Shown here: positions 4,900-50,288 of the stretch, piece after piece
Numbering within the stretch: the stretch's first letter is position 1
How the letters are laid out: each line of letters begins with the position of its first letter
Notes under the pieces: model-generated
What the model saw: the letters and a program-made list of their open reading frames with translations, nothing else
Told to the model about the DNA's origin: nothing
Database searches by the model: none
NCBI GenBank assembly: GCA_964017185.1
Contig: OZ024870.1
Coordinates: forward strand, 30,341,621-30,405,620
Direction of reading: 5' to 3'
Origin: Rugalucina vietnamica
Taxonomy: Eukaryota > Mollusca > Bivalvia > Lucinida > Lucinidae
Length of the DNA: 64,000 nt
Made by a program: the position numbers and the translations under genes

Positions 4900-7797
4900 T
4901 GTTGTCATGAAATAGGTCAGGGTCGACCCAGGCTCATCATTTAAGCAAACTATGGTGCACATGAGTTCTTCATCCATCATACGTAGTTTCAAAGAAATTG
5001 GTTTGTCCAAAATGAATTCCCAAAGGAAAAGATATTCTAGCATTTTTAGCATATGTACGCATGGTAACCATTTTGATTAAGATAAGAAGATATTTGAATC
5101 TCACAGATTTATACATGCATATAGCCCCAGGATATGGGCAGTCAACCCCAATGATTTTATATACACAAATCTGTAAATATTCCTACTATTTCAAGCAAAT
5201 TTCCTCATAAATGACCTTTTCCCCCATTTTCTTCCATTCATCTGCCTAGAAGACTTAAGTTGACTGTGTAATAAAAATAGAAGGTTTTTAATATATATGG
5301 GTATAGCTGCCATCTTGGACATGTGACCTGAATTATTTATGAACCCCTTTCATACAGATCCTCCCTATGAAATTTGGCTTTGATATACCATGTGGTTTCA
5401 GACAAAAAGATCTTTATATATTTTGGTAAAATACATGTACATTGCCCCAAGGTGAGGACAGACCAACCCGTGGAGTCCAATTCTTTAAAGAATCATAAAT
5501 CGTCAGTTCATTTACTCCAATCCTGCAAGTTTTTCCCTACAAATGACATTTTAACACTTTTCTCCATTCAAATTCATGGGTGACCTATGTTGACCTTGCA
5601 GTAAAATAGGTCAAGGTCATCCCAGGGTCATGATTTATATAAACTTTGTAAAGCTCCTCTCACTGATCCTTCATGTCAAGTTTCAAAATCATACACCTTC
5701 TGGTTCTAAAGAAGAGGATTTGTGGAGGTTTTTGGTATTTATAGCCATGTCGGCCATCTTGGTCATGTGACCTTGACCATTTATATAAACTTTCATTCCC
5801 ACTTCCTAACAACGCTCCACATAAAGTTTGGCTTCAATTGGCCTAGCAGTTTCAGAGATGAAGATCTTTGACTATCACAGTAATATACATTTATATTGCC
5901 CCAGGGTGGGGGCAGACAGCCCTTCGGGTCCAAATTTTTTCAGAATCATAAATCTTAAGTCCATTTGCCTATTTCCTGCAAGTGTTTCTCTTTAAATGAC
6001 ATTTTAACAATTTTCCCCATTCAAATACATGGGCAACTTACATTGACCTTGCTGTAAAATAGGTCAAGGTCATCCAAGGGTCATGATTTATATATACTTT
6101 GTAAAGTTCCTCTCCCTGATGCTTCATGCCAAGTTTCAAAATCATAGGCCTTCTGGTTCTGGAGAGGAAGATTTCTAAAGGTTTTTGCTATTTATAGCCA
6201 TGGCAGCCATCTTGGTCATGTGACCTTGACCTTTTATATAAACCTTATTTGCTGCTTCCCAAGGATGCTCCATGTGAAGTTTGACTTCGATTGGCCAAGC
6301 GGTTTTAGAACAGAAGATGTTTCAATATTATGGAAATTAGCATGTATATAGCCCCGGGGCATGGGCAGACAACCCCCAGGGGGCAAAATTTTTCCATAAA
6401 TATTAATCTTCTGTCCATTTGCCTATTCCCAGAAAGTTTTACCTATTAAATAGTATTTTACCATTTTTTTCCCATTCAAATGCATTGGCGACCTAAGTTG
6501 ACCTTGCCGTAAAATAAGTCAAGGTCATCCCAAGGTCATGATTTATACAAACTTTGTAGAGCTCCTGTCCCTGATGCTTCATACCAAGTTTCAAGATCAT
6601 AGGCCTTCTGGTTCTGGAGATGAAGACTTTTAAAGGGTTTTGCTATTTATAGCCATGGCTGCCTTCTTGGTCAGGTGACCTTGACCTTTTATATAAACTT
6701 TCTTTGCTGCTTCCCAAGGATGCTCCATGTGAAGTTTGGCTTTGATTGGCTTAGCAGTTTTAGAACAGAAGATGTTTCAATATTATGGAAATTAACATGT
6801 ATATAGCCCCGGGGCAGGGGCAGACAACCCCCAGAGGGCAAAATTTTTCCATAAATATTAATCTTCTGTCCATTTGCCTATTCCCAGTAAGTTTTACCTA
6901 TTAAATAGTATTTTACCATTTTTTCCCATTCAAATGCATTGGCGACCTAAGTTGACCTTGCCGTAAAATAAGTCAAGGTCATCCCAAGGTCATGATTTAT
7001 ATAGACTTTGTAGAGCTCCTGTCTCTGATGCTTCACACCAAGTTTCAAGATCATAGGCCTTCTGGTTCTGGAGAGGAAGATTTTTAAAGGTTTTTGCTAT
7101 TTATAGCCATGGCGGCCATCTTGGTCATGTGACCTTGACCTTTTATATAAACTTTCTTTGCTGCTTTCCAAGGATGCTCCATGTGAAGTTTGGCTTTGAT
7201 TGGCTAAGCGGTTTTAGAACAGAAGATGTTTCAATATTATGGAAATTAACATGTATATAGCCCCGGGGCAGGGGCAGACAACCCCCAGGGGGGGGGCAAA
7301 ATTTTTCCATAAATATTAATCTTCTGTCCATTTGCCTATTCCCAGCAAGTTTTACCTATTAAATAGTATTTTACCATTTTTTCCCATTCAAATGCATTGG
7401 CAACCTAAGTTGACCTTGCCATAAAATAAGTCAAGGTCATCCCAAGGTCATGATTTATATAAACTTTGTAGAGCTCCTGTCCCTGATGCTTCACACCATG
7501 TTTCAAGATCATAGGCCCTCTGGTTCTGGAAAAGAAGATTTTTAAAGGTTTTTGCTATTTATAGCCATGGCGGCCATCTTGGTCATGTGACCTGGACCAT
7601 TTATATAAACTTTCGTTCCCCCTTCCTAAGGATGCTCCACATTAAGTTTGACTTTGATTGGCCAAGCGGTTTCAGAGGAGAAGATCTTTGAAATTGTGGA
7701 CGACGGACGACGGACGGACGGACGGACGGGCGACGGACGGACGCCGGAGCATGGGTATACTATAAGCTCACCTGTGAGCCTTCGGCTCAGGTGAGCT
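4900..7797 (+). repeat. Family A tandem-array element, about 455-bp units, 3' hairpin
   Basis: About six units are recognised by the anchor 'aggtcaaggtcatcccaggg' at about 4913 (diverged), 5600, 6053, 6507, 6968 and 7424. Spacing settles at 453-461 bp, and the last three units are nearly identical. Each unit carries 'gcggccatcttggtcatgtg' and 'ccttctggttctgga'. After the last unit comes a run of GACGG repeats (7698-7745), and then the terminal hairpin at 7765-7797. No protein is encoded. The left end is not recognisable, so the element may be 5' truncated. The layout matches HINE/pearl-type non-autonomous elements. Confidence 0.75.
7765..7797. repeat. Terminal hairpin of family A element
   Basis: The outer arms AGCTCACCT and AGGTGAGCT enclose an inner stem GAGCC-TTC-GGCTC. 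Near-identical hairpins close the elements at 37141-37174 and 50255-50288. Confidence 0.9.
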
Positions 7798-8029
7798 AAA
7801 AATCAGCAACATTTTCCATAAAGTTGGTAATATGAGGTATAGAAAAGTTATGTTGCAGCATTCATCATCATTTTCTACAAAGCGATCACAGCCAGACGGA
7901 AAAGGAAAAAAATAATGAGAATAAAATAATAAAAAATGGAACGTTTTTCGTTGGTGACGTCGAAAAGATGTGATTGTGGCAAAAAAATGTCATTTTCTTA
8001 TTCACCTAGATTAAAACCAAAACATTCTG

Positions 8030-10659: not shown

Positions 10660-10921
10660 CAGTTTTACGTCCCTTTCAAGATTATTTCAGTCCCTTTCAA
10701 GATTATTTCAGCTCATTTAAGACGGGTCAATCAGTAGGTGGGCGAAAAACGGGAGAACCCCGAGAAAACACACCTGACACACCAGCAAGCAGAACTTGGC
10801 TTGTCTCACATATGGCCAGAGCGGGGCTCAAACCTACACCTGTCACAGTGGTGAGATGATCAAGTGATTAAGAGACAGCGCTCTTAACCGCTCAGCCACG
10901 GGGGCCGCTCCACCTATCTTT
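10615..10921 (-). mobile_element. tRNA-derived SINE with 12-bp target-site duplication
   Basis: On the minus strand the head has an A box (TGGCTGAGCGGTTAAGAG, near 10880-10900) and a B-box-like 'aggtttgagccccgc' (near 10825-10840), as in tRNA-Leu/Ser-type heads. A conserved body follows and ends in a long A tail (the T run at 10622-10654 on plus). Direct repeats CCACCTATCTTT flank it at 10615-10626 and 10910-10921. It lies in intron 4 of sulfatase copy 1. Confidence 0.85.
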
Positions 10922-12556: not shown

Positions 12557-13390
12557 ATGTTTTGTAAAGAGAAACAGAGATTTGTTGAATTCTTTTCCAT
12601 CTATTATTATTTAAACATTTAATAGTGAGAAAAAGAGATTTCATAGAAACTCCATTTAGAATATTTCTTAATATTATACCAATCCCATAGTATTCTGTGT
12701 ACGGCAAAGGTTAAATTGAGTTTGTCTAAAATATAGGTAATATTCCTTGCTTTTTAAGCAGCCATGTACAATCTTTTCACATGGCTGGTCCATATTATGT
12801 CAATGTTAGACTTGATTTTGACACGAACTGCTCATGAAGTTGAACCTACCAAAGTAAGAATCAAATCCACGACTGTTTGGTAGATAGTCTTTCTTGTACA
12901 TGCCAACATGCCATTTCCCGACAGCATGGGTAGAATATCCCGATTCTTTCATTTTGTCCGCGATGGTAGGGCTATCCAAGGGGAGACCATTTGGTTGGGT
13001 TGGCCAGATAATGCCATGCTGCAAACCTGTGTGAATCTGAAAGACCAATGAATTGATCATCATATTAGAACCAATGCAACTTTCTGACTCTTCATGTATC
13101 ATAAGACATGTCTGGATATAAAGAAAATATGTAGCCAAAAGTTGTGATTTACTGTTTGAAAATATTATGATATTTGTAAGTTCAAACTGAGCTAAGATTT
13201 ATTTGATATAGTCACAGCATCATGTTACCATACAAATTCAGTGTGTCTTGTGGGAGTTTATGTAATGGTTAAATGTTGGTTTAAATCTGTTTTAAATACA
13301 ATCTGCAAAATCACAAGATGGTAATTAATATCAAAAGAATAAAGAAACACAAATGCTTAAATTCAAAATAGTGGTAGTAATTATCATATC

Positions 13391-13628
13391 TGAGCCGCCG
13401 CATGGGAAAATCAACAATCTGCATTGGCGAAAAACAAAGGTGCAGATCAGACTCGAAGTAACTGCGAAGCTGATCAGCACCTTTGTTTTCGCTACATGAA
13501 TAGTACAATTCCTCTACTTTCTAAATCCAAAATTTCCAGCCTCTAACCATCTTCTGTGACTGTACAGCCCGGTTTGTGTCAGAACCGGTCGAAAACCCCG
13601 AAAACCGGTTTTCTCACGCACAGGCTCA
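13391..13628. mobile_element. P-type MITE in intron 1 of sulfatase copy 1
   Basis: It runs from 'tgagccgccgcatgggaaaa' to 'ttttctcacgcacaggctca', flanked by TTATCAT on both sides (a possible TSD). An orthologous copy sits in intron 1 of copy 2 (43785-44026), so this insertion is older than the gene duplication. Confidence 0.8.
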
Positions 13629-14341
13629 TTTATCATCTTAGAATCAAATGCAAACAATACCTGATATCTTCCTGACAGTAGCTGACTTCGTGTTGGTGTG
13701 CAAATGGGCTGTATGTAATAGTTCTCAAGCTTGATTCCCTCATCTGCCAACTTGTCCAGGTTTGGTGTCTTTATCTCGGACCCGTGATAACCAATGTCAT
13801 GCCAACCATAGTCATCAGCCAGAATGAAGAGGATGTTAGGTTGTTTACTCTCGCACTGAGTTAGAAAAGTTGATACCAAAAGGCAGCAAACAAGTTGAAA
13901 ATGGATCATAGCTGCTTCATAAGTCTATAAGACTTCCTGTAAAAACAAATTGTATGGAAAAGAAATGCCATCCTACAGTACAATTTTTGTGTGCGATACA
14001 TGGATAAAAACTGACAAATAAACTGTTATAAAACGTAAAACACACCTTTGAATGAACATTTGTATGAATGATTGTATTGCCCTACCAAGACTTTTCGAAG
14101 AACTGATATCAGGACGGGCAATCCACGTGTGTGCAGTACCCCACCCACAGCGATAGCACACGGAGGCGCAAGTGGCTAGCTTGCGTTTGTTTTGCAAGAC
14201 AAATTCAACTATATACAGACTTTTAACATGGCAAAATAAATGATTACTGAATGGGAAGATGAAACTTATTATTGGAAACTCATTATAAATTTAATTAACT
14301 AAAATCTACAGTAAATTAAACCAAATCTACAGTAAACTGTC

Positions 14342-22272: not shown

Positions 22273-24203
22273 TAAGAGCTGTCACAGGACAGCGTGCTCG
22301 ACTGCTTCTGACCTTTGTCAAACATAAGGTCAAACCCGACCAGTAACCCAAAGCATTATGCTCATACATCTTTTTGCCTTGATGCAATAAGGCAAAATCA
22401 CTGAACTATGAAAGTTAACTATAACTACCTAAGATTTAGAGGTCTCACTCATATTGTGAAAGAAAAGTGTTCATATACCAACTGAGTGCCAAGACACAAG
22501 GCAAAATCTGGCAAAAGACACAACTGAACCGTGAAATAAGGTCACACTGACCTATAAGGTCTAGTGATACTTACTCATAATGTGAAAGAAATATGATCAT
22601 ATACCCATTCAGTGTTGAGATATAAAGCAAAATCACTGAACCATGAAATTAGGTCATAGTGACCTATAAGTATGTTTGGGTTAAAGGTCTGGTCATACTC
22701 ATTCATAATCAGAAAGAAGTATGAAAAAATACCGACTGAGTGTCGAGATATAAGGCAAAATCACTGAACCATGAAATTAGGTCACAGTGACCCAGGAATA
22801 CTTTACGGTCAAAGGTCTTGTCATACTCATACATATTGTGCAAGAAGTATGTCCATATACCAATTGAGTGCCGAGATATAAAGGAAAATCACTGAACCGT
22901 GAAATTAGGTCACAGTGACCTAGGACTACTTCAGGGTCAAAGGTCTTGTCATACGCAAACATACTTTGAAAGAAGTTTGTTCATAAACCATTTGAGTACC
23001 GAGATATAAGGCAAAATCACTGAACCGTGAAATTAGGTCACAGTGACCTATAAGTATATTGGGGTCAAAGGTCTGGTCATACTCACTCATAATCTTAAAA
23101 AAGTATGAAAATATACTAATTGAGTGTCAAGATATAAGGCAAAATCACTGAACCGTGAAATTAGGTCACAGTGACCTATAAGTATATTGGGGTCAAAGGC
23201 CTGGTCGTACTCACTCATAATCTGAAAGAAGTAAGAAAATATACTAATTGAGTGTCAAGATATAAGGCAAAATCATTGAACCATGGAAAGTAGGTCAAAC
23301 GACCCTTACCATCATGACACACAAGTCAGTGTCACAAAGTCAAAAGATGAATGACCAACCATCTTCCTAAGTTGTTTCTATTAAAAAATTAAAAGAAAAA
23401 AATTCGGGGAGTTCTAGATTTTGACCTCTAGCCCCGCCCCCCTGACTCCGACCCAGAGGTCCGATGTCATGGAACCTAAAGCGTATGAAGCATGTGAAGT
23501 ATGAATGCTTTATGATAAGTTGTTGTCAAGATATGGACTCCTTGTAAAAGTTGCACAGCAGTACATCTATTTTTACAGTGTTCTAGTTTTTAACCTCCAG
23601 CCCCACCCCCCAGGCATGGACCCAGAGATCCGATGCCATGAAAAGAAACTCAACCCTACAGGGTACCTATGGTCCGAGTATGAAAGCCCTCTGATAAAAA
23701 GTTTTCAAGATATAGACTTCTAGAATACTATATCAGCTGTATATCACAGAAAAGCCATTATTATTAATGGTGTTCTAGATTTTAACCTCTAGCCCCACCC
23801 CCTGGCACGGACCCAGGGATCTGATGCCATGGAATGAAAGCCGACCCTACAGGGTGTCAATGGCCCAAGTATCAATGCGTTCTGATGAGTGGTTGTCAAG
23901 ATATGGACTTCTAGAAAACTTTAACACAAGAATTGCCATTTTTGAAGGTGTTCTAGATTTTAACCTCCAGCCCCACCCCCTGGCCTGGACCCAGGGGCCC
24001 GATGTCATGGAATGAAAGCTAACCCTACAGGGTATCTATGGTCCAAGTATGAATGCTTTCTGATGAGTGGTTGTCAAGATATGGACTTCTAGAAAACTTT
24101 AACGCAAGTGTGACGCGCACGGGAACGGGAACGCACACGGGAACGGGAACGTGGACGACCGGGGTGACAGCAATAGCTCTATGCACTTCGTGCAGTCGAG
24201 CTA
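22273..24203 (+). mobile_element. Family C hairpin-ended element with two minisatellite arrays
   Basis: This 1.93-kb element is inserted in a SINE. Inside are about seven 128-bp units (anchors at about 22493, 22622, 22749, 22878, 23003, 23133, 23262: 'aaaatcactgaaccgtgaaa') and four units of about 180 bp ('cagccccaccccctggc' at 23430, 23599, 23790, 23970). A GGAACGGGAACG run (24120-24155) precedes a terminal hairpin (AGCTCTATGCACTTCGTGCA...GAGCT). Subterminal inverted repeats are GCTCGACTGC at 22296-22305 and its complement at 24192-24201, plus GCTGTCAC near 22278 and GTGACAGC near 24164. The empty site in copy II shows no real target duplication. No protein is encoded. Confidence 0.75.
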
Positions 24204-25960: not shown

Positions 25961-25974
25961 AAATTCAGAGAATT

Positions 25975-26703
25975 TATGTCCCCCGCCTTGATTGTTTAGT
26001 TACACAAATATAATCTAAGAAGCCACATGAACTTTCTAAGTGTAAATGCCCAAAAAACGACTAAGTTCAAATTACGAAAAAGTGATAAAAAATAAACTGA
26101 GGATAATATGCAAATCATATGCGTATCTTCAAAGCATTATAAAGACAGTTTGTAAAGTTTCAAAAGAATCGGAATAAAATTGTAGGAGGAGTTGCGCACA
26201 CAAGGTACCCCCTGTCCATTCACTTTCATTGTCAAAATGATCGAAAAATGACTAAGTTCAAATTGCGAACAAAAGTAATAAAAATTAATCTGAGGATTAT
26301 ATCCAAACCACATGCATATCTTCAAAGCCTGGTTAAGGCACATGTAAAGTTTCAAAACAATCGGAATAAAACTTTAGGAGGAGTTGCGCACACAAGGTAC
26401 CCACTGTCCATTCACTTTTATTGTCAAAACGCTCGAAAAATGACTAAGTTCAAATTGCGAAAAAAGAGTGAAAAATTAATCTGAGGATTATATCCAAACC
26501 ACATGCATATCTTAAAAGGATGGTATAAACATCTGTAAAGTTTCAAAAGAATCGGAGTAAAACTGTAGGAGGAGTTGCGCACACAACGTACATACTCTAT
26601 AGGGGGACGGAAAGACGGAAGGACAGACGGACGGACGGACAGACGGAATGACGGAAAGCCAAAAACTATGTCCCTCCGCTTTTCTTCGAAAAGGCGGGGG
26701 ACA
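25975..26703. mobile_element. Family D element (third copy) with GTCCCCCGCC hairpin
   Basis: The left subterminal repeat ATGTCCCCCGCCTT is mirrored in the right hairpin (26668-26703; GTCCCTCCGC...AAGGCGGGGGAC). The core has about three tandem units of roughly 200 bp carrying 'ggaggagttgcgcacacaag' and 'aaatgactaagttcaaattg'. A GACGGACGGAC run (26620-26650) lies just inside the hairpin. Confidence 0.75.
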
Positions 26704-27079
26704 ACAATCGTACAGCGATCGGTCATTGCATAGTCACGTTGTATTGGTACAGTGGTCGCATTGTTTATCGGTACCTCCACGCGACTAGCATTGTCCCGTT
26801 CAACTGTTTCATTGACTGAACACGGAACCAAAATGACCTTTGCCATGATATGTATTGGCATAATATCACGCTTCTAACCAAAAGTAACTTGTATTATGCA
26901 GGCGAAAATCAGACTTTATACACAAAACAAGTATAAGCTTTCACAAAAAGCTTGGTCTACGCTTCGCATATATAAACTAGAATGTCAAAGAATCTGACCG
27001 TACTCCCATTTCATCGTGGTGCATTTTACTGAACAGAAATAAAACGCTGCGCGGTGAAAGCATCCATACCTGACAATCG

Positions 27080-34169: not shown

Positions 34170-34241
34170 AAATGACACTGTTAATGTTAGTTCCAAGTTC
34201 TGAACATACAGAACTTGGAACTAACATTAACAGTGTCATTT
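34170..34241. repeat. Perfect 33-bp-arm hairpin, 6-base loop
   Basis: Arms 34170-34202 and 34209-34241 are exact complements ('aaatgacactgttaatgtta' and so on), with loop AACATA. Confidence 0.95.
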
Positions 34242-34370
34242 AGGTCACAACATGTAATTTTATATTGTATTTTCCTATCTCTAACTGCCACAACACTTCG
34301 ATTTTTATATTTTATTTTTAATATCAAAATGGATAAATAATGCAAGATCTTTTCAGCCATTTACTTTATT

Positions 34371-35250
34371 ATGCCCCCAACTTCGGAAGAAGTTGAGGGG
34401 GCATATTGGTTTGGGTCTGTCCGTGCAGTGCAGTGAGTGAGTGCAGTCAGTCAGTCAGTCAGTCAGTCTGTGATGCGAGAGCACTCGGTCAGGAACTGTT
34501 TGAGCTAGGATCTTGAAACTTGGTATGTAGTTTGTATATGAAAATTAAGAGGACCCGTATTTTTTCTTTCAGGTAAATTCAAGGGGCTAGGGGCCAATTC
34601 TGTGAGAGTTATATCCCTTTTTAATTCTTGATAAAGTGAATAGATAGTGGATACCTTGTGTGCGCAACTCCCCTTACAGTTTTATTCCAATTCTCTTGAA
34701 ACTTTACAGATGTTGTGACCATGCTTTGAAGATATGCATGTGGTTTGGATATAATCCTCAGATTAATTTTTTGTCACTTTTTTCGCAATTTGAACTTAGC
34801 CATTTTTCGGGCATTTTGACAATGAAAGTGAATGGACAGTGGGTACCTTGTGTGCGCAACTCCTCTTACAGTTTCATGCCAATTCATTTAAAACTTTACA
34901 TGTATTATGGGCATGGTCTGAAGATATGCATGTGGTTTGGATATAATCCTTGGATTATTTTTTGCCATTTTTTTCCTAATTTGAACTTAGTAATTTTTTC
35001 GGGCATTTTAGTGAATGGATAGAGGGTACCTTGTATGATAAACTCATCCTACAATTTAATACTGATACTTTTGAAACTTTGCAGACATTGTGACCATGCT
35101 TTGAAGATATGCATGTGGTTGGGATATACTCCTCAGATTAATTTTTGTCACTTTTTTTACAATTTGAATTTAGTCATTTTTCGGACATTTTTACATCTTG
35201 AAAGTGGCTTACCAGTTGGGGGCATAGTGTTTCATAAACACATTTTCTAG
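34371..35250 (-). mobile_element. Family D element (first copy)
   Basis: A hairpin at 34371-34404 (ATGCCCCCAACTTC-GGAA-GAAGTTGAGGGGGCAT) is followed by a GTCA/GTGA run (34430-34470). Three to four tandem units of about 190 bp come next ('gtgtgcgcaactcc', 'gatatgcatgtggtttggat'). The far end, 'ttgggggcatagtgtttcat', repeats the hairpin arm as a subterminal inverted repeat. It lies in the opposite orientation to 39745-40996. Confidence 0.8.
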
Positions 35251-35734
35251 TTTTTAGGGTGATCTCAATTAGAACAGAACCAGCAAACTGTTTATTACAC
35301 AAACGCTCAGTAATACTATATAAGCTAAGTATAAACACAAATAAAATTATGAGTATTATAGAAAATGTGTTATTAACATAGTAAAATGTTATGCAATTTT
35401 TAAAAAAAATGGTACAAAAATATAGCACTTGTTTCATATAAAAACGTAACATCACAGTCCGGAACAGTAAGTAACCCATTTAGTAACTCATGTCTAGTAA
35501 AAAGGGGGAAAAACGATGATTTCTTCTTAATATAACATGCTCAGGGTATTGATTTCTGAGTCCCTTTTTACAACCCGAGTATGGTATTCTGTATATAATT
35601 TCATAAAGTTCACGTACTGTATACTTTGCTCTTCCATAAAAGTATTGCCACCACATTTAAAGAACATGTAAACAAAATATAGTGAAAAATTGACTATAAA
35701 TTTCATAAAGAAGAGGACCAATTGTCCTGTAAAC
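35251..35734. other. Unassigned AT-rich stretch
   Basis: No ORF, repeat or homology recognised. Confidence 0.3.
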
Positions 35735-37174
35735 GCTCACCTGAGATCTGGGGTATATTCCAATAAACAAGACCTTGTCGTAAAATAGGTCAAGGTCAAC
35801 ACAGGATCATAATTTATGTACATATTGCAGTACTCTAGTCCACAATGTTACATGCCAAGTTTTGTTGAAATTGGTCCATCGGTTCCGGAGAAGAAGATTT
35901 TTGAAGAGGTTTTACCACATATGGGCATGGCGGCCATCTTGGCCAGGTGACCTGAATTATTTATGTACACATTGGTTCCCCCTTCATCCTCTTCATATAG
36001 ATGCTTCATATCAAATTTGGCTTTAATTGGCCAAATGGTTTCAGAGAAGAAGATCTTTGAATATTACAAGATACAAGATAGCATGAATATTATGGTAATA
36101 TACAATGTCATGGTAAGATACCATGAATATTATGGTAATATACATGGTAAGATACCATAAATATTATGGTAATATACATGTGTATTGCCCTGGGGTGGGG
36201 GCAGACCAGCCCCTGGGGTCCAATTTTTTCAGAATCACAAATCTTCAGTTAACATGCCCATTTCCTTAAAGTTTTTCCCTTCAAATGACATTTTGACAAT
36301 TTACCCCATTAAAAAGCATTTGCCACCTGTGTTGACCTTGCCATAAAATAGGTCAAGGTCATCCCAGGGTCATGATTTATATAATCTTTGTAGAGCTCCT
36401 TTCCCTTATGCTTCATGCCAAGTTTCAAAATTTCAGTTTAACGTCCCCTTCAAGATAATTTCAGCTCATATGAGACGGACCAATCAGTAGGTGGACGAAA
36501 ACGGGAGAACTCCGAGAAAAAAACACCTGGCACACCCGCAAGCAGAACTTAGGCCAGTGTGGGGCTCGAACCCATGCAAGACACAGCAGTGAAATGATCG
36601 AGTGATTAAGAAACAATGCTCTTAACCGCTCGACCACAGGGGCCGCTCAAGCTGTTTAAGAGAAGATGTTTGAACATTAAGGTAATATACATATAATGCA
36701 CCGGGCTGGGGGGCAGACCAGCCCCTTGGGTCCAATTTTTTTCAGAATCACAAATCTTTAGTCCATTTGCCCATTTCCTTCAAGTTTTTCCCTTCAAATG
36801 AAATTTTGACAATTTTTCCCATTCAAATGCATGGGCGGCCTAATTGTCATCCCAGGGTCATGAATTATACAAACTTTGTAGAGCTCCTCATGCCAAGTTT
36901 CAAAATCATAGGCCTTCTGGTTCTGGAAAAAGATTTTCAAAGTTTTTTTTTTTTCTATTTATAGCCATGGTGTCCATCTTGGTCATGTGCCTGAACCATT
37001 TATACATACTTTTGTTTCCCTTTCCTAAGGATGCTCCACATGATGTTTGGCAATGATTGGCAAAGTGGTTTCAGAGGAAATCTTTGAAATTGTGGACGAC
37101 GACGGACTACGGACGGACGCCGGAGTATGGCCATCCTATAAGCTCACCTTGTGAGCCTTCAGCGCAGGTGAGCT
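35735..37174 (+). mobile_element. Family A element, shorter copy with both ends
   Basis: The left subterminal GCTCACCTGAG at 35735 pairs with the right hairpin (37141-37174, AGCTCACCT...AGGTGAGCT). Units of the 455-bp family start near 35785, 36344 and 36845. A GACGGAC run (37095-37118) precedes the hairpin. Three tandem units of about 42 bp ('gaatattatggtaatataca') lie at 36060-36180, and a SINE is nested at 36427-36655. Confidence 0.75.
36427..36655 (-). mobile_element. tRNA-derived SINE nested in the family A element
   Basis: The minus strand head 'cctgtggtcgagcggttaag' (A box) and B box 'gggttcgagccccac' match the SINE at 10627-10909. It splits a family A unit right after 'gccaagtttcaaaa'. 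Confidence 0.8.
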
Positions 37175-37517: not shown

Positions 37518-40500
37518 TTACTCCCATGGTCCCCAAAAACCACCGAGAAGTTTTGGATTTGCCCTTGGATCATCTTTGGGGTACCGGCATGGAACTGCTG
37601 TGGCTTGGTAATCTGACAATTTCTTCAACATCATTTTAACAATATCTGGCTTCTGATCGGATAAATCATTATGTTCATTTGGATCAGCTGTTATGTTGAA
37701 TAACCAGACGTTTTTCTGGGGTTTCTGTATGTTTGTATCATCATAAATTGGAGATATTCCAGCATATGGCGGTGGTATCCAACTTCCGTTACCTAAGAAA
37801 AACAGATATATTAACTGCTTATTATGATCATAGACAGACAGACAATAGTTTATTATAGTCTCACTTCCACATATATAGATGTACAAACAGCAATATATGA
37901 TAGAAACATTCTTGTTAAGAATTATGACAGACTTCTTGAATCAATAAATAAAATGCATTACACAATAAGTGTCTACAAATTATATGTACACCAATCAAGA
38001 TGCTTCCACCTTACAAGATGGCGCCGCCAAAACACGCAACTCAAGTGGCTGGGCGTTTTCCCTACCCACAAGAGCCACTAATCTGGACAAACGCCGATGT
38101 GGTCAGTGGAAATGATATCAGCCGAACGGCCCACGCACCACCACGCCACTCGCATGCGAGAAACATGTGGCGGAAACCAATGTCAAGACAGCATGCCCCA
38201 AACCGACCGCCGCAGAGGTGCACAGCCCGTGCAGTTGAGTTACAAATTTCAAAAAGCCTGAACTATTCCAGTTATGTACATAAAACGTTACAAACATCTA
38301 GAGGCATATACCCAAAACACAGTACAAATAATTATATACAAATTATTGAAACAAAATTTTACATGAATACTAATATGTACAACCTTCTGAAATGGTAATA
38401 TGATTACTTATATGGTTGTTTGCGTCTTTCTGATAAAATGGCTTTGCAGACTTATTACTGGAATTATTTCACAGCTAAAAATGCAAATTAATTTATCCTG
38501 TCTTGTTTTTGCATAAACGTCTGGTACATGCTGTCTAAATTTTGCAAACCCAGGCTCCCTAATTTGAAGGTATAAGGGATAATCTAGCAAAACCACTAGA
38601 TTTTCACAATTGCTCTATCTATATGATTAACCTTGTAAAGCTATTTTTCTACATACACTAATACTCTCCATGGATCAAGATGGATTTGATTTATCATGTC
38701 TTTAACTCTATCCTTCCATCATCTTGTCATCATTAATTCTAGTAAATATGCAGATAATAAAACATATGAAAATGTACATAAAATACCAAACAGAGAGAAA
38801 CAAAAGAGAACTACTTCATTGGAATGGTCAGTAACACATTATAAACAAATTACTGAGTGTCCACTTAAAAAACAAACTTAAAATAGGGCCAAGTGCATAA
38901 ATCTAATTAATGGCACCAAGTATTTGTATATACTTAATCTTTCCAGTACTTATGAAGACAAAAGTAATATTTATTTATCTAACCTGGATTGCCTGTGATA
39001 ATTTTCCAGTCTCCACTCCGCAGAGCAGCTCGTCGTGTTGTATCAAATGTAACATTAGGTAGAGGTGTTCCAGCGGGCTTAAACAACGGGTCTATGTTGT
39101 GGAGAATGTCTTTACGAGGGCTTGCAGATTTCTTGCTGTAAAGAAAAATAGATAAGAGCTTGTTAAATTCAATTTTATTTTAGATGCTTGGAGTTGATTT
39201 TCCAAAGTACTTCATATTCCATTCAGAGCTGTATTATTTATTTATTTATTTATTTTTTTCATATTTAAGCTTTAAAATTTCTGAACATAGCGTTATTATC
39301 ATCAAAATCATGTGAAATTCAAAGTGTCTGAACTTAAGTGCAAATAGTTTAAAAACAAAATATAAAATTATTGTTTCACTCACTTGATTGTATCCCACTG
39401 ATTAAAGCCATCCAATGGTTTGGTTCCATTCAAATTCCCTCCAGCTATATGGACCAGAGTCGGGAACCAGTCTGTCACATGCATTAGGTCATGTGATGCC
39501 TTTCCTACAGCACCATCACTTAGAAGCTTGCTGTGGACAAAGCCCACTCCATGGACACCTCCCTCCCAAAGGGAAGCTTTCCAGCCTCTCAATGGATAAT
39601 TGTTGCCACCCTCATGAATCTGTCCCCCATTATCTGCAAATTTATAAAACCAGATATTCCAAGCAGTAAACATATGCATTTCTCCTTAGAAATCATCATA
39701 ATAAATTTAACAGAACATTAATTAGAATCTTATTCTAGTAATAACTAGAAAATGTGTTTATGAAACACTATGCCCCCAACTGGTAAGTCACTTTCAAGAT
39801 GTGAAAATGTCCGAAAAATGACTAAGTTTAAATTGCAAAAAAGTGACAAAAATTAATCTGAGGAGTATATCCCAATCACATGCATATCTTTAAAGCATGG
39901 TCTCAATGTCTGTAAAGTTTCAAAAGTATCGGTATTAAATTGTAGGAGGAGTTGCACACACACAAGGTATCCTATAGCCATTCACGAAAATGCCCGAAAA
40001 AATGACTAAGTTCAAATTGTGAAAAATGACAAAAAATAATCTGAGGATTATATCCAAACCATATGCATATCTTCAGACCATGCCAATAACACATGTAAAG
40101 TTTTAAATGAATTGGCATGAAACTGTATGAGGAGTTGCGCACTCAAGGTACCCACTGTCCATTCACTTTCATTGTCAAAATGCCGGAAAAATGGCTAAAT
40201 TCAAATTGCGAAAAAAGTGACAAAAATTAATCAGGGTTATATCCAAACCACATGCATATCTTCAAAGCATGGTCACAATGTATGTAAAGTTTCAAAAGTA
40301 TCCATATTAAACTGTAGGAAGAGTTGCGCACACAAGGTACCCTTAACTCATTCACTAAAATGCTTGAAAAATGACTAAGTTCAAATTGTGAAAATAAAGC
40401 AAAAAATAATCCAAGGATTATATCCAAAACACATGCATATCTTCAGACCATGCTCATAATACATGTACATGTAAAGTTTTAAAAGAATTGGCATGAAACT

Positions 40501-43500
40501 GTAGGAGGAGTTGTACACACAAGGTACCCACTGTATTTTCACCTTCATTGTCAAAATGCCTGAAAAATGGCTAAGTTCAAATTGCGAAAAAAGTTACAAA
40601 AATTAATCTGAGGATTATATCCAAACCACATGCATATCTTCAAAGCATGGTCACAACGTCTATAAAGTTTCAAGAGAATCCATATTAAACTGTAGGAGGA
40701 GTTGCGAACACAAGGTACCCACTATCTATTCACTTTATGAAGAATTAAAAAGGGACATAACTCTCACAGAATGGGCCCCTAGCCCCTTGAATTTACCTGA
40801 AAGAAAAAAATATGGGTCCTCTTAATTTTCATAAACAAACTACATACCAAATTTCAAGATCCTAGCTCTAACGGTTCCTGACCGAATGCTAAGCGTTATT
40901 CACACACTGGTAGCACTAGACGGACAGACAGACCCAAACCAATATGCCCCTTCAACTTCTTCAAAGTTGGGGAACTTCTTCAAAGTAAGGGGCATAAAAA
41001 TGGTTTTCACCCCACACACTCTCTCTCTCTGTCTCAGTGAGTGTGTGGAGAACTATACTTGTACATGTTGTTTTAACAACCTGTTGGCTGCGCAGAATTT
41101 ATAAGAGCCTTATATTAAACAATAAGTACAAAAAAGCATTTTTATGAAAAATTAAAACTGAAGCTCTACTGTATATATCTATTCAATTTGTGAACAAATG
41201 AATGGTTTTATACCTGTTGAGAAAATTGTTACAGTATTATCCCAGATACCCTTAGCCTTGAACGCTTCTGTAATATTCCCAACAGCTTCATCCATTGCAG
41301 AAGCCATTCCTATTTGAAAACAACATGGTCAAATGCTGATTTAATGTGCATAATACTTGGTAAGGTAATGAGGGTGTCACAGTATCAATAGATACATGTA
41401 GATAGGTGTAACAAGAACAAAAAGCCATCACTTCATGAAACGAATTTCACCTGAAATGAAATCACCTACAGAGAATTTATTCTGTCACATGAAAAGGAAT
41501 TAAATCTACTGTGCTTGAATTGACCCACTGTTGTGTAAGAACTGGTTCAAAATGTTCAAATAATTCCAACAGTTATATACAGTTGTTGTTCTTCTTCATA
41601 AATAATCACACAGAATCTTACCTGCATATTGTTTCCGGTTGTGATTCAGTATATTTGGATATCTGTCAGTATATTTCTTAGGAACTTGCAATGGAGCATG
41701 CACCGCTTGAAAAGGCAAGTAGATAAACAAAGGCTGAAACCAAACAATAAAGAAATTATTGTCAACAAAACATTACTAAAACACGCCCATGCAATATATG
41801 GAGATTTTTTGATCTGTTAAAATTGAAAATTTTGTTCGAAATAAAAAAAAGAAGATGTTTTTTATATATTTGGTCCAAACATTGATTGTGGGTACACGTT
41901 AGAACCGCTTTGTCGAGGCGGTTCTTAAGAGTATCCACAACCTATGTTTTGGACCAAATATAAGAAAAATAGGTATACCCCTTCATACCCAAGTTTTGCT
42001 ATATAAAAGTGGGTATACATTACACGGACATGTTTTCCTGATGTGCTTGCTTGACACTATTTGGAAATGATCTTAAAAACTTAATTTTCCCTAATTTTTG
42101 CAATTTCAGTGCCTCGCGATTTCAAAGATCTTGCTTAATAAAATGAAATACTTACAAAAGGTTTTAAGAATGCACATGCCCTCTCACAAATTCAAAAGCT
42201 CACTAATAATTTGTAAATAGATAATTCGCGAGAAATAAAGTCACACAAAAAAATTCCGAATTTTCAGTAGGTGTTTAAAATTTCAAGTTTTTTCTTCTAT
42301 TCTTTGTTCAAAATTTTTCCTACTTTACAAATAAAATCTTTTTAAAAAATAATTCTATATCACAATCCTGTCTGAGTATCTGAGTCTTTCATTGAACATA
42401 TTCATTATTACACAAGATCTACAGACAACACATAAGGAAAACATGTCCGTGCACTGAGTACCCCTTAAACCTCACTTCTTTATAGTAAAACTGGGGTATG
42501 CTTGGGTACACATATTTTTCTTATTTTTGGTCCAAAACATAGATTGTGAGTACTCACTAGAACCGCCTCAGCAAGGCAGTTCTTCTAACGTGTATCCACA
42601 ATCAATGATTTGAACAAAAATAAGAACAGCGTCGATTTTTTTCTGATATAAAGTTTCATTTTTGTAGCTTTAAAATGCCTGTTTATTACATGGGTATGTT
42701 TTTGTAATGATACCTTGTCTCCATCATGATTCTTGACAATGTCAATAACTTTATCTGCAAACAGCTCTGAGGAGTAACTGCCATTTGCAAAAGTAGGGTT
42801 AGTGTTGTCTCTGAGGTCCATCCCACAGAAACTATTGTAACATCTGCCGTGGGTGTAGTAATCTTCACTGCCTGTTAGATAACCTAGAGAGAGATGGGAT
42901 AAAAACATTCTTTTGAGAAACAGAGATAAATTTTGTTGATTTTTTTTCTCCAAAACTGAGCACAACCTATGATAAGTTAGATATTTTAAAGTGAGAAATA
43001 GAGATTTCAGATGAAGGCAAACCATACATCTAGATTTTTTTTCTAAATAATATATAAATCCCACATTATTCTGTGAATTATTCTGTGTATAGCAAATGTT
43101 AAAATGAGTTTGTCTAAAATATAGCTAATAAAGCCTAATATTCCTTGCTTTTTCAAAAAACAATGTACAATATTTTCACATGGCTGGTCCGTCAATGTTA
43201 GACTTAATTTTGACACTTGATTTTGTTCTAAAACTGCTCATGAAGTTGAACCTACCAAAGTAAGAATCAAATCCACGACTGTTTGGTAGATAGTCTTTCT
43301 TGTACATGCCAACATGCCATTTCCCAACAGCATGGGTAGAATATCCCGATTCTTTCATTTTGTCAGCAATGGTAGGGCTATCCAAGGGGAGACCATTTGG
43401 TTGGGTTGGCCAGATAATGCCATGCTGCAAACCTGTGTGAATCTGAAAGACAAATGAATTGATCATTCTATTAGAACCATTAGGCAACTTTCTGATTCTT

Positions 43501-44311
43501 CGTGTATCATAAGACATGAAAATATGTAGCCTGAAGTTGTGATTTACTGTTTGAAAATATTATGATATTTGGGAGTTCAAACTGAGCTAAGATTTATTTG
43601 TTATTGTCACAGCATCATGTTACCATACAATATAGTGTCTCTTGTGGGAGTTTACATAACGGTTAGATGTTGGTTTATATCTGTTTACAAATGCAATCCA
43701 CAAAATCACAAGATGGTAATTAATATTAAAAGAATAAAGAAACACTAACACTTTAATTAAAAAAGTGGTAGTAATTATCATATCTGAGCGGCTGCATGGG
43801 AAAATCAACAATCTGCATAGGCCAAAACAAAGGTGCAGATCAGACTCACCGTGAGTAACTGCGAAGCTGATCAGCGCCTTTGTTTTCGCTACATGGATAG
43901 TACAATTCCTCTACTTTCTAAATCCAAAATTTCCAGCATCTAACCATCTTCTGTGACTGTACAGCCCAGTTTGTGTCAGAACCAGTCGAAAAACCCCCAA
44001 GACCGGTTTTCTCACACACAGACTCTGACATTTATCATTTTAGAATCAAATGAAAACGGTACTTGATATCTTCCTGACAGTAGCTGACTTCGTGTTGGTG
44101 TGCAAATGGGCTGAATGTAGTAGTTCTCAAGCTTGATTCCCTCATCTGCCAACTTGTTCAGGTTTGGTGTCTTTATCTCGGACCCGTGATAACCAATGTC
44201 ATGCCAACCGTAGTCATCAGCCAGAATGAAGAGGATGTTTGGTTGCTTACTCTCACATTGAATTAGAAAAGTTGATACCAAAAGGCAACAAACAAGTTGA
44301 AAATGTATCAT
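37518..44311 (-). CDS. ARSB-like: Arylsulfatase B-like gene, copy 2, eight exons, complete
   Basis: The exons (minus strand) are 44063-44311, 43256-43442, 42714-42883, 41622-41733, 41214-41309, 39384-39633, 38984-39135 and 37518-37792. Lengths 249, 187, 170, 112, 96, 250, 152 and 275 sum to 1491, giving 496 residues plus stop, with GT-AG at every junction. A signal peptide (residues 1-21) is followed by [15 protein letters not shown] (metal-binding Asp pair) and [13 protein letters not shown], whose Cys70 would become formylglycine. Then come [60 protein letters not shown], and a C-terminal region with [19 protein letters not shown]. These are the family landmarks of ARSB, which removes 4-sulfate from N-acetylgalactosamine in glycosaminoglycans. 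The substrate here is inferred. Introns carry MITEs, a family D element and a LINE-like tail. Confidence 0.9.
37820..38400 (-). mobile_element. Possible LINE 3' end in sulfatase intron 7
   Basis: The minus strand ends 'agactataataaactattgt' followed by (CTGT)n at 37837-37850, a typical LINE-type tail. The GC-richer part at 38000-38230 has no recognisable protein. Confidence 0.35.
39745..40996 (+). mobile_element. Family D element (second copy) in sulfatase intron 5
   Basis: The left end 'ctagaaaatgtgtttatgaa' followed by CTATGCCCCCAAC pairs with the right hairpin near 40945-40996 (diverged: TATGCCCCTTCAAC...GGGGCATAA). Five to six units of about 180 bp carry 'ggaggagttgcgcacacaag' and 'atccaaaccacatgcatatc'. 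Inverted relative to 34371-35250. Confidence 0.8.
41770..42043. mobile_element. Q-type MITE in sulfatase copy 2, intron 3
   Basis: It runs from 'actaaaacacgcccatgcaa' to 'cacggacatgttttcctgat', with the hairpin 'attgtgggtacacgttagaa' near 41885. It ends about 37 bp from the exon 4 acceptor. Confidence 0.75.
42434..42710. mobile_element. Q-type MITE abutting the exon 3 donor of sulfatase copy 2
   Basis: It starts 'aaggaaaacatgtccgtgca' and ends 'atgggtatgtttttgtaat', about 4-5 bp from the GT donor at 42713. The hairpin core lies at 42530-42610. Confidence 0.75.
43785..44026. mobile_element. P-type MITE in intron 1 of sulfatase copy 2
   Basis: It sits at the same position and in the same orientation as 13391-13628 in copy 1, with the same TTATCAT flanks. 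Shared by descent through the gene duplication. Confidence 0.8.
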
Positions 44312-45159
44312 AGCTGCTTCATAAGTCTATTAGACTTCCTGTAAAAACAATGATCCAATTGTACGAAAAAAAAAATGCCATCCAACGGTACAATTTGTGT
44401 GTGCGATACTGCTGTTAAAGTTAAGATATTATCAACCTATGGAAACGGTGTATTAGAAAAACGGTGAATCAACGGGGGTTAATCGGAAAAATGTGAACCA
44501 TCGGGCGAGGTGTCGGTGACACATCGGGATTTACAATGGCGACACGGTACGTAGTTTTAATTTTCTTTTTGTTTTGTTCCGACATGGCTGGGTGACGTTG
44601 TATGTCAAAATTCTGTTTGCTGCAGGAGCTGTAGAAATCATTATTGTTCTTTATTATGTAAACAGTTTGTAAATAAATATTCCAAGAAACGCGTGATTGT
44701 GCGCCCCATTTTAGAGGGCATGCCTTTCAAGGTCACGAAAACACATTTTCGTTTGATTTTCTAGTAAAAGAAATGGACCAAGAAGGTCACGTTGGTATTT
44801 GCAAATGAATAATAGTATACTGGAAAATTCCCACAAAAAATAAAGTCTCGCCAAGCATTGCAAAGGGAGTTAATGCTAGGTGCATTTACATAATGTGAGG
44901 CATCGGGCAAGTTGTGTGAGACAACGGGGCGAATTTTGTGAGTCATCGGGCAATCAAAACTTATTGCATTAATTTCCGATTATAAACACTCTAGAGCTAT
45001 TTTTGATCAAGGTAATTTCATATTCCGTGTCATCTTCGACCCGGTAATTTCATATTCCGCATCATCTTCGACCCTTTCTTGTTGGGAAATTAAAGAGCTA
45101 GACCGACAAGAGTAAAACGCTAGCTAGTGTAAAACGCGATGCAAATTTGTTGCAGACCA

Positions 45160-46736: not shown

Positions 46737-46748
46737 TTATAATTATTA

Positions 46749-46786
<38 letters not shown>

Positions 46787-47035: not shown

Positions 47036-48038
47036 GCTGTGACTGGCATCTTTGTCCCTAGATCTCACAAGAAACGTTAAGCAATCATCTGGCACCTCAG
47101 CGGTAGACATCAGAGGGGGCATTTCAGGCCCTGATAATTTTAGGAAAGAAGCTATCCCAATAGATACTGTTCCATGTTATTTCCAAAGATTGGACCTGCG
47201 TTTACTGTTATAATTTTCCCAGTCTTCAAATCGGCAACGGAAGAAATTTAAGAATTGGAGACAGTATCTTTTCCAATTATTTCTTACACGTTTTCATTTG
47301 CTTCAGCTTCATTTAACCAGCGAAAAAAAAACTATATTTATGCGAACAGTGCGATATGACGGACGCTGCGGACGAGGAACGTCCGAGTTCTCATCACTGC
47401 CGGTGATTAACGTGTGTTTATAGCATCCGTAATTGGGATAGATATGATCCCACTCAAACTAAAAGTTAAAAAACAACAATCATATACTGTCTAGAATGAA
47501 GAAAATAAAGTTTTATTCCATCAAAATTTGGTTGCTCCCCGGCGACACACACAACTTGCCCGGAGACTCACCAAATAATCAATCACCCGGCTGAATCTCG
47601 ATTTTCCCAGTCTTTTTTACAAATTTTCTGAAGGTTGATAATCAGGAGCTTACTTTTCTATATTCACCAATCTGAATTAAGGTTGGTTACATTCGTAATT
47701 CGATGTAAGCATAAAAAATAAACAAAAAATACAACCGAAAGTCAACTGAAATGTTTGAGTAGTAAAATGGGGCGCACTGTGGCGATTAAACAAAATACAT
47801 TTTCAACAATTTTAGGGTTTCCGGGGCTGCATCAAAGACCCTTACAGCTCCTGCAAGTGTTCGATTTGTTTTTATTTACTGCAGTATTTTTAGCTTTCGC
47901 TTCAAAATAGAAGTAAACAAACAACATACCTTTTAACTAGTGCAAATCCCGATGTGTCACCGACACCTCGCCCGATGGTTCACATTTTTCCGATTAACCC
48001 CCGTTGATTCACCGTTTTTCTAATACACCGTTTCCATA

Positions 48039-50288
48039 TTTGACCCCAGGGGCAAGATTGGCAGGATTTATGTAGAGCTCCACATGATAATGTTGTATAT
48101 CAAATATACAAGCTTTGTGTCATGCTGTTGCAGAGAAGATTTTTTCATATGTTTCCATTATAAGTCTGGTAGATAATGACATGCCTGGGGCATGGCCTGT
48201 ATGGACCCCAGGGGCACCGTTGGCAGCATTTATGAAGGAGAGTATTATACATTGGTCCACACAACATATGAAAGCTCTGGGCCATATGGTTTCAGAGAAG
48301 AAGATTTTTTTATGTTTTTCCCATGACACCCCCGGGATGGGGCCTGCATGGACCCCAGGGGCATGGTTGGCAGGATTTGTAGCAGGATTCAAAAAGAGGA
48401 CCACTTTACATTGCTACACACAAAATATGAAAGCTTTGGGCCTTGTGGTTTCGGAGAAGAGGATTTTTTAACGTTTTACCCATGACGCCCCCGGGGCAGG
48501 GCCCGTATGGACCCCAGGGGCATGGTTGGCAGGATTTATAAAGAGGACCACTATACATTGCTACACACAAAATATGAAAGCTCTGGGCCTTGTGGTTTCG
48601 GAGGAGAAGATTTTTTTATGTTTTATCCATGACCCCCCCCCACCCCCTCCTGGGGCAGGGCCCGAATGGACCCCAGGGGCATGGCTGGCAGGATTTATAA
48701 AGAGGACCACTATACATTGCTACACACAAAATATGAAAGCTTTGGGTCTTGTGGTTTCGAAGAAGAAGATATTTTAAAGTTTTTCCCATGACGCCCCCGG
48801 GGTGGGGCCCGTATGGACCCCAGGGACACGGCTGGCAGGATTTAAAAAGAGGACCACTATACATTGCTACAAACAAAATATGAAAGCTCTGGGCCTTGTG
48901 GTCTGGGAGAAGAAGATTTTTTTATGTTTTACCCTTGACCCCACCCCCCCATCCCCGGGCGGGGCCCGTATGAACCCCAGGGGCACGGTTGGCAGGATTT
49001 ATATAAAGGACCACTATACATTGCTACACACAAAATATGAAATCTTTGGGTCTTGTGGTTTCGGAGAAGAAGATTTTTTAAAGTTTTTCACATGACGCCC
49101 CCGGGGCAGGGCCCATATGGACCCCAGTTGGCAGGATTTATAAAGAGGAACACTATACATTGCTACTGACAAAATATGAAAGCTCTGGGCCTTGCGGTTT
49201 CGGAGAAAAAGATTTTTTTTTTTATGTTTTTCCCACTGAAAGTCTATGGGAGTCTATGGGAGCTAATGACCCCCCGGGGCGGGAGCCATTTTTGACCCCA
49301 GGGGCATGATTGGCAGGATTTATATAGAGGACCACTAAACATTGCTACATACAAAATATGAAAGCTTTGGGCCTTGTGGTTTTGGAGAAGAAGATTTTTT
49401 TTATGTTTTTCCCATGACACCCCCGGGGCGGGGCCCGTATGGACCCCAGGGTCACGGTAGGCAGGATTTATAAAGAGGACCATTATACATTGCTACACAC
49501 AAAATATGAAAGCTCTGGGCCTTGTGGTTTCGGAGAAGAAGATTTTTTTAAAGTTTTTCACATGACGCCCGCGGAGCAGGGCCCGTATGGACCCCAGGGG
49601 CACGGTTGGCAGGATTTATAAAGAGGACCACTATACATTGCTAGTGACAGTATATGAAAGCTCTTGTCCTTGTGGTATCGGAGAAAAAGATTTTTTATGT
49701 TTTTCCCAATGTAAGTCTATGGGAGCTAATGACCCCCCGCGGCAGGGCCATTTTTGACCCCAGGGGCATGATTGGCAGGATTTATATAGAGGACCACTAA
49801 ACATTGCTACATACAAAATATGAAAGCTTTGGGCCTTGTGGTTTTGGAGAAGAAGATTTTTTTATGTTTTTCCAATGACACCCCCGGGGCGGGGCCCGTA
49901 TGGACCCAAGGGGCACGGTAGGCAGGATTTATAAAGAGAACCATTATACATTGCTACACACAAAATATGAAAGCTCTGGGCCTTGTGGTTTCTGAGAAGA
50001 AGATTTTTTTTTTTATGTTTTTCCCATTGTAAGTCTATGGGAGCTATCTGTTGCCATGGAAACCAGAGTTCTGATCCGACCTGGCCCAAAAACTAATACA
50101 ACTAATACAACCTTTCCCGCTCCTCAATGATGCTTTAGATAAAATTTGATTACGATCGGCCATGTTGTCTTAGAGATATTTGAGTTTGAAAATGTGAACG
50201 GACGGACGCACGGACGCACGCACGGACGGACGCCGGCTCGACTACTATACTATAAGCTCACCTTGTGAGCCTTCGGCTCAGGTGAGCT
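48039..50288 (+). mobile_element. Family B element: 13 or so units of about 155 bp, 3' hairpin
   Basis: The anchor 'ccccaggggca' recurs from 48044 to 49907 at 145-175-bp spacing, with 'aaaatatgaaagctctgggc' and 'cggagaagaagatttttt' in each unit. After a spacer come a GGACGGACGCACGG run (50198-50232) and the AGCTCACCTTGTGAGCC hairpin at 50255-50288. The left end abuts the long-TIR element and is not recognisable. No protein. Confidence 0.8.

What the first reader, a model, noticed from the sequence alone, without database searches (positions are those of the whole stretch)
4900..50288. Four unrelated repeat families share one blueprint: subterminal inverted repeat, tandem core, short-word run, terminal hairpin
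Seven elements are involved: family A at 4900-7797 and 35735-37174, B at 48039-50288, C at 22273-24203, and D at 25975-26703, 34371-35250 and 39745-40996. All encode no protein and consist mainly of a minisatellite (455, 155, 128+180 and about 190 bp units). Most carry a short-word run (GACGG, GGAACG or GTCA) just inside a terminal hairpin whose arm is repeated at the other end where that end is visible. Known HINE/pearl/DINE-type elements, mobilised by Helentrons, look like this. Seeing four distinct sequence families with the same plan in 64 kb suggests one mobilising machinery, or convergent amplification of tandem arrays captured between fixed ends. A and B even share the same hairpin with unrelated cores, which suggests core swapping.
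Basis: partly seen in the sequence, partly recalled or inferred. Interest (0 to 1): 0.8.

Follow-up and report, generated by a model that had tools for sequence, protein, structure and literature searches.

The report
Rolling-circle mini-transposons carrying tandem repeats
Seven protein-less mobile elements in this animal genome, which looks like that of a bivalve, belong to a known class (HINEs, hitch-hikers of rolling-circle Helentrons), and the repeat cores of two of the families, described as unrelated, turn out to be relatives.

Summary
In detail: all seven elements lie within a few bases of the stated coordinates, except that A2 and D1 extend further. A1 and B lack the 3' end. An empty copy of C's insertion site lies in the window (56890-57112): C entered a five-A tract with no target duplication beyond an ambiguous AA. 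The Helentron-type reading is supported, and the plan is already in print for the Pacific oyster, including shared ends with different cores and two arrays in one element. "Four unrelated families" fails: A and B cores share a ~60-bp box, found with profiles built from either family alone, far above decoys. The box also lies beside the short-word run in D2 and D3; for C's 178-bp core it is suggestive, for the D core weak, for C's 128-bp core absent. A/B core swapping is therefore not needed. The D core does occur with two end sets, here and in database copies. No Rep or helicase domain was found in 28 window ORFs.

The parts
4905..7797 (-). Element A1 (5' end at 7797), 454-bp tandem core, 3' end missing
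   Evidence: TRF 5548-7700; 5' subTIR 7784-7797, IR 7765-7780, no 3' subTIR; left limit read by eye
7765..7797 (-). A1 5' subTIR plus IR hairpin
   Evidence: z -7.4, 0 of 200 shuffles
7698..7743 (-). A1 short-word run
35710..37174 (-). Element A2, both ends present; exact 3' limit uncertain
   Evidence: 5' subTIR 37162-37174, IR 37141-37157, 3' subTIR 35735-35745, 3' palindrome 35714-35728
36443..36648 (.). Secondary repeat nested in A2 (SINE-like by eye), 78 % identical to 10690-10910
   Evidence: sequence
48039..50288 (-). Element B, 147-bp core, 3' end missing where another repeat (47919-48038) abuts
   Evidence: 5' subTIR 50275-50288, IR 50255-50271
50198..50233 (-). B short-word run
50125..50176 (-). 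Shared box in B beside the short-word run
   Evidence: A-only profile, E 0.00027
22273..24202 (-). Element C with two consecutive arrays (178 bp 23769-24108, 128 bp 22556-23297)
   Evidence: 5' subTIR 24190-24202, IR 24175-24186, 3' subTIR 22296-22305, 3' palindrome 22278-22293; run 24113-24151
56890..57112 (+). Empty-site copy of the sequence into which C inserted
   Evidence: left flank 89.6 %, right flank 93.6 % identical, meeting in an A5 tract
25961..26703 (-). Element D1, D core with its own end set; exact 3' limit uncertain
   Evidence: 5' subTIR 26688-26703, IR 26669-26684, run 26605-26655, core 26053-26591, 3' subTIR 25977-25989, palindrome 25961-25975
34370..35250 (+). Element D2
   Evidence: 5' subTIR 34370-34384, IR 34389-34405, run 34426-34468, core 34631-35196, 3' subTIR 35213-35226, palindrome 35227-35241
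39745..40996 (-). Element D3
   Evidence: 5' subTIR 40978-40996, IR 40943-40959, core 39800-40736, 3' subTIR 39769-39782, palindrome 39754-39768
34489..34530 (+). Shared box in D2 between short-word run and core
   Evidence: found by profile of A boxes alone, E 0.0046
40840..40881 (-). Shared box in D3, same place
   Evidence: E 0.012 with A-only profile
49491..49547 (-). Best of 13 B hits with E < 1 to the A-only box profile
   Evidence: E 7.9e-8
7024..7089 (-). Example of the A-core box (two kinds per 454-bp unit)

Best explanation
The seven elements are HINEs: non-autonomous elements moved by the Rep/helicase/endonuclease of a Helentron. Inferred steps: the enzyme recognises the 5' subterminal repeat and its hairpin as start and the 3' subterminal repeat plus palindrome as stop, copies one strand by rolling circle, and inserts it within a T tract without target duplication. 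Shown steps: the end anatomy in 5 of 7, the empty site of C, and the abundance of the B and D cores in a protein database. The tandem cores of A and B probably arose at least partly from the element's own 5' segment: their core units carry the box that also sits beside the short-word run, and D2/D3 carry the box in that place too. Arrays then grew by unequal exchange or aberrant rolling-circle copying (inferred). The D core became joined to two end sets, and both combinations occur in further copies.
For: Anatomy; empty site of C; no Rep, helicase or DDE transposase domain at E up to 0.01 in the 28 of 28 listed ORFs of 110 aa or more; same relative orientation of core and ends in A1/A2 and in D1/D2/D3. 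Box: the A-only profile has 32 hits with E < 1 (A1 11, A2 6, B 13, D2 1, D3 1), all in the elements and in the same orientation; best decoy E 0.62. The B-only profile finds A1 at E 1.3e-7. A and B units align at 258 against a maximum of 120 in 300 shuffles. Abundance: 1266 of 1297 and 456 of 498 candidate protein clusters match B-core and D-core ORFs at E up to 0.01. Plan as in Cg_HINE (PMC7492417, Results and Discussion read) and HINE/DINE-1 (PMC4067079, Results part 1 and section 8 read; PMC2374699, passages).
Against: No autonomous Helentron found. Only one empty site. A1 and B have one end only. For C and the D core the box is weak: C 178-bp unit no hit with the A-only profile and 4 of 1000 shuffles as good with the enlarged ones; D units 14 to 33 of 1000; C 128-bp unit no hit. 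The B-only profile does not find D and reaches C only at E 9.2; its best hit outside the elements is E 0.18; the enlarged profiles give one outside hit at E 0.43-0.51. Direct alignments: A-D 36 and B-D 229 of 300 shuffles as good, and A to C128 is better on the opposite strand (7 of 300) than on the expected one (198 of 300). Within families the box is only slightly more conserved than the rest of the unit, so selection on it is not shown.
Confidence: 0.9

Rival explanations
1. They are MITEs moved by a DDE transposase, with captured satellite arrays.
For: Inverted repeats, no mobility gene, high abundance; for DINE-1 a MITE reading with a 2-bp TT duplication has been weighed (PMC2374699, passages).
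Against: One inverted repeat is internal, with a palindrome outside it, in 5 of 5 elements with both ends; the empty site of C shows no duplication beyond an ambiguous AA; short-word run and adjacent IR fit HINEs.
Confidence: 0.05
2. The cores are captured satellites, and A and B share a box because related satellites were captured twice.
For: D and C128 cores show no firm relation to A/B; the literature allows capture (PMC7492417, Discussion).
Against: The box lies beside the short-word run in A1, A2 and B and also in D2/D3, whose core is different.
Confidence: 0.4
3. The box resemblance comes from convergence of AT-rich, short-motif sequence or from chance.
For: C and D core scores are marginal; one opposite-strand alignment (A to C128) is as good as some expected ones.
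Against: A-to-B and B-to-A profiles give best E of 7.9e-8 and 1.3e-7; reversed and shuffled windows give no better than 0.62 and 1.2.
Confidence: 0.05
4. A and B arose by core swapping between identical ends.
For: Shared 5' 190 bp; same-ends, different-core pairs are reported (PMC7492417, group 2).
Against: The cores are relatives, so divergence explains them without a swap; the 3' end of B is missing, so its end set is only half known.
Confidence: 0.15

Closest known systems
Cg_HINE elements of Crassostrea gigas (PMC7492417; Results and Discussion read)
   Same: 5' subTIR, IR, microsatellite (several GTCY type), short satDNA-like array, 3' subTIR, palindrome, TT-rich insertion, no TSD; same ends with unrelated cores (group 2); two consecutive unrelated arrays (Cg_HINE_11_12), as in C here.
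   Different: There a given core goes consistently with one pair of ends; here the D core goes with two. Group 2 and 3 cores are called unrelated; here A and B share a box.
C. gigas Helitron families with conserved boxes (PMC8268682, passages)
   Different: There the stretch is shared by two named close families and is not said to recur in the core units (passages only); its sequence could not be fetched.
Pearl elements CvA, CvE, CvG (Crassostrea virginica), MgE (Mytilus), DTC84 (Donax) (named in PMC7492417, PMC5139131, PMC11136912)
   Same: Modular plan with about 160-bp core units; some core families share two conserved motifs despite divergence (BIV160/Cg170, PMC5139131, passages).
   Different: Sequences could not be fetched; whether those motifs equal the box found here is not tested.
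DINE-1 of Drosophila (PMC2374699, passages; PMC4067079, parts read)
   Same: Block A split by a GTCY microsatellite, conserved core stretch in block A, central repeats, 3' block with stem-loop.
   Different: Central repeats are said not to share homology between species. A similarity of the box to the stretch after the DINE-1 microsatellite is recalled only, from no call.

Membership tests
HINE (non-autonomous Helentron) | 5' subterminal repeat with an adjacent inverted copy | tested here: met
   7 of 7 elements; A2 and C weaker
HINE (non-autonomous Helentron) | 3' subterminal repeat complementary to the 5' one, followed by a palindrome near the 3' end | tested here: met
   5 of 7 (A2, C, D1, D2, D3); A1 and B lack it
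HINE (non-autonomous Helentron) | microsatellite and tandem core in constant orientation | tested here: met
   run called by TRF in 5 of 7, short in A2, nearly lost in D3; orientation constant within A and within D
HINE (non-autonomous Helentron) | insertion in T-rich site, no target duplication | tested here: met
   C by empty site, TT ambiguous; A2, D2, D3 flanks T-rich at one or both ends, D1 not; only one empty site of five complete elements
HINE (non-autonomous Helentron) | no coding capacity of its own | tested here: met
   4 ORFs of 110 aa or more touch the elements (26143-26481, 26427-26873, 34648-35019, 48091-48468): no mobility domain, one below-cutoff olfactomedin match E 0.00029 in D1
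HINE (non-autonomous Helentron) | autonomous Helentron with the same ends in the genome | not testable with these tools
   own-genome search unanswered nine times; no Rep or helicase in the 28 ORFs scanned
Canonical Helitron | 5'-TC, 3'-CTRR after a hairpin, A/T insertion, no subTIRs (definition recalled) | tested here: not met
   subTIRs at both ends in 5 of 7; only D2/D3 end in CTAG, and no element starts with TC
MITE of a DDE transposon | terminal inverted repeats and fixed-length target duplication (definition recalled) | tested here: not met
   3' repeat internal by 19-29 bp from the limits used; no duplication beyond AA at C

The most novel reading that the evidence does not exclude
A conserved box just inside the short-word run is an ancestral, possibly functional, module of Helentron-type elements, and 'independent' satellite cores of different HINE families are amplified and diverged copies of that module rather than captured host satellites. 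The box next to the run would be the seed, and many bivalve satellites would trace back to one Helentron segment.
Probability: 0.25. Interest if true: 0.55.

Novelty: new member of a known kind. Interest (0 to 1): 0.33.

Why it matters
Whether satellite cores of HINEs are captured or grow from the element itself is left open in the oyster study (PMC7492417, Discussion read). A box shared by the post-microsatellite segment and by core units of families with different cores gives a direct sequence test of the second answer. The anatomy itself confirms a known class in a further genome and adds one core carried by two end sets.

Tried and rejected
Exact-word scan for the triple-repeat blueprint over the whole window: 74 groups at 8 bases against a mean of 11.6 and a maximum of 24 in 100 shuffles, but mostly words inside arrays and an unrelated palindrome family near 10-13.5 kb; of the seven elements only D2 and A2 were recovered with their true ends, so it is not used as evidence. 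Searches for the same ends or box in IMG/VR: six gave no match and one (L006) lies in what reads by eye as coding sequence of a viral contig, so I take it as chance. GTDB scan: 5 matches, about what 18 fixed bases give by chance in that collection (my estimate 7 to 8); loci L001-L005 were not read. Phage collection, 801 bases of A1: no match. Rfam at gathering scores: no match. Long ORFs through the B and D arrays are taken as a by-product of unit lengths, not genes. The 710-aa plus 1059-aa ORF pair at 14336-20676 was checked as a possible Helentron: it is a non-LTR retrotransposon. A coding origin of the box was considered and not tested. A likeness of the box to Drosophila DINE-1 is recalled only; the text search for that string found 0 papers and the DNA pattern found nothing. 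Searches for shared core motifs in print: 0 papers; 2 papers, both seen as passages only; the library lacks most subscription papers, and the DTC84 paper is not held.
Full report
Setting. The window is animal DNA with a non-LTR retrotransposon and sulfatase and GPCR gene pieces. The GPCR ORF matches a database protein at 100 % over 64 % of its length on an 8.4-Mb contig, listed as the window's own, with relatives on other contigs, most of them Mb-scale. No call names the organism; a bivalve is my inference from the oyster-like elements.

Anatomy. I turned every element so that the short-word run comes first. The order is then: 5' subterminal repeat, short loop, inverted copy, spacer, short-word run, tandem core, 3' subterminal repeat, palindrome. 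Coordinates are and the parts list. The 5' hairpins fold better than all 200 shuffles in five elements (A1, B, D1, D2, D3; D3 folds as a branched structure) and than most in A2 (6 of 200 as good) and C (1 of 200). The 3' palindromes are short: 0 of 200 shuffles as good for D2 and D3, 4 for A2, 6 for D1, 13 for C. The 3' subterminal repeat matches in 5 of 7. A1 and B have none. B ends at 48039 exactly where another repeat, also present at 44438-44557, begins, and in one database copy a B-type array appears to run further (P0017, read by eye), so B is probably truncated.

Insertion. The sequence left of C (to 22272) and right of C (from 24203) is present uninterrupted at 56890-57112, 89.6 and 93.6 % identical. 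The empty copy reads CTG-AAAAA-TTG; the filled site has AA on the left and AAAAA on the right. So there is no duplication, or at most an AA that may belong to the element. This matches what is reported for HINEs (PMC4067079, Results part 1). It is one site among the five elements with both ends; no empty site for the other four was found in the window.

Core relations. Each 454-bp A unit carries two versions of a roughly 67-base box, 146 bp apart, and the two sub-units around them are homologous (0 of 500 shuffles as good), whereas the third part of the unit is not clearly so (416 and 28 of 500). A profile made only from six A1 boxes has 13 hits with E < 1 in B (best 7.9e-8), one of them beside B's short-word run (50125-50176), and one each in D2 (E 0.0046) and D3 (E 0.012), between short-word run and core; D2 and D3 are close relatives, so these two are one observation. 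All 32 hits with E < 1 lie in the elements in the same orientation; the best in two 64-kb decoys is 0.62. A profile from five B boxes finds A1 (best E 1.3e-7) and A2 but not D, and C only at E 9.2; its best hit outside the elements is E 0.18 and its best decoy 1.2. The B unit aligns to the A unit at 258 against a maximum of 120 in 300 shuffles, and to one A sub-unit over most of its length (0 of 500). With the enlarged profiles the 178-bp C unit scores above all but 4 of 1000 shuffles (no hit with the A-only profile); it aligns to B above all but 5 of 300, to A above all but 33. D units exceed all but 14 to 33 of 1000, depending on unit and profile, and by direct alignment A-D is matched by 36 and B-D by 229 of 300. 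The 128-bp C unit gives nothing with the profiles. On the opposite strand the profiles give no hit in any of the seven units, but by direct alignment A to C128 is better on the opposite strand (7 of 300) than on the expected one, a warning against reading much into weak scores. So A-B kinship is firm, the D2/D3 linker box likely, C178 suggestive, the D core weak, C128 negative. Conservation inside families does not single out the box.

Modules. A1 and B share about 190 bp at the hairpin end, 75 % identical (A2 and B 71 % over 178). D1, D2 and D3 share the core (best alignments 81 to 90 %), but D1 lacks the box-bearing linker, has a diverged 5' end (2 of 500 shuffles as good) and a 3' end that does not align to that of D2 (294 of 500). 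Among the 120 listed database proteins that match the D-core ORF, 4 contain the translated D1 hairpin: in P0174, P0224 and P0234 it follows the core as in D1, in P0163 it precedes it, as at a junction of two elements. Word matches to D2/D3 linker or 3' end occur in 3: P0168 and P0193 in the D2/D3 order, P0244 with the 3' end after the core, again as at a junction; P0213 adds a linker by alignment. None of the 120 contains the D2/D3 hairpin itself, and none of the 120 B proteins any of the hairpins sought. Thus both D combinations occur in several further copies; their species are unknown. The oyster study says that a core goes consistently with one end pair (PMC7492417, Discussion), while a later review reports the same arrays across different Helitrons in oyster (PMC12628747, passages), so this is not new in kind.

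Abundance. Searching ORFs across the B and D cores gave 1266 of 1297 and 456 of 498 candidate clusters at E up to 0.01; all 120 rows listed in each come from ENA, most from contigs above 0.1 Mb. Species are not shown, so this shows abundance, not spread among species. Of the 120 B matches, 32 also match A1 and 31 A2 by tblastn, in line with the shared box.

Mobiliser. None of the 28 listed ORFs of 110 aa or more has a Rep, PIF1 helicase or DDE domain; shorter frames and frames running off the window were not scanned. The own-genome search did not complete, so the partner is unknown.

Precedent for the box. A conserved stretch between microsatellite and core is known in two oyster Helitron families (PMC8268682, passages), and two conserved motifs recur in otherwise divergent bivalve satellites (PMC5139131, passages). 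I could not compare sequences with either.

Verdict. The finding describes genuine HINEs and reads the class correctly. It is a further case of a published kind. The useful additions are the empty site, the corrected ends, the D core with two end sets and, most of all, the box that ties together two cores called unrelated.

Noticed in passing
window 14336-20676 (+): Apparently full-length non-LTR retrotransposon: 710-aa ORF with weak (below-cutoff) coiled-coil and GDSL-lipase matches, then 1059-aa endonuclease/reverse transcriptase ORF.
   Followed up: partly
window 12601-13999 and 42967-44409: 87 % identical duplicated stretch holding sulfatase-like exons; by eye D3 may lie in an intron of the second copy.
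   Followed up: no
window 47919-48038 and 44438-44557: 120-bp repeat, 92.5 % identical, abutting the broken end of B; contains a small palindrome near one end (by eye). Nature unknown.
   Followed up: partly
window 52162-53029 and 54452-55320: 874-bp inverted repeat, 92 % identical, about 1.4 kb apart.
   Followed up: no
window 10024, 10300, 11144, 13463: Repeated short palindrome around GATCAGCTTCGCAGT, whole or in part, near the first sulfatase copy.
   Followed up: no
window 34170-34242: Long palindrome just upstream of D2, read by eye; looks like a small foldback element.
   Followed up: no
window 61950-62402: 30-bp minisatellite of about 15 copies inside the 507-aa GPCR ORF.
   Followed up: no
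window 26143-26481: ORF through the D1 core gives a below-cutoff olfactomedin-domain match (E 0.00029), and one database relative (P0141) carries PF02191; probably repeat-derived noise.
   Followed up: no
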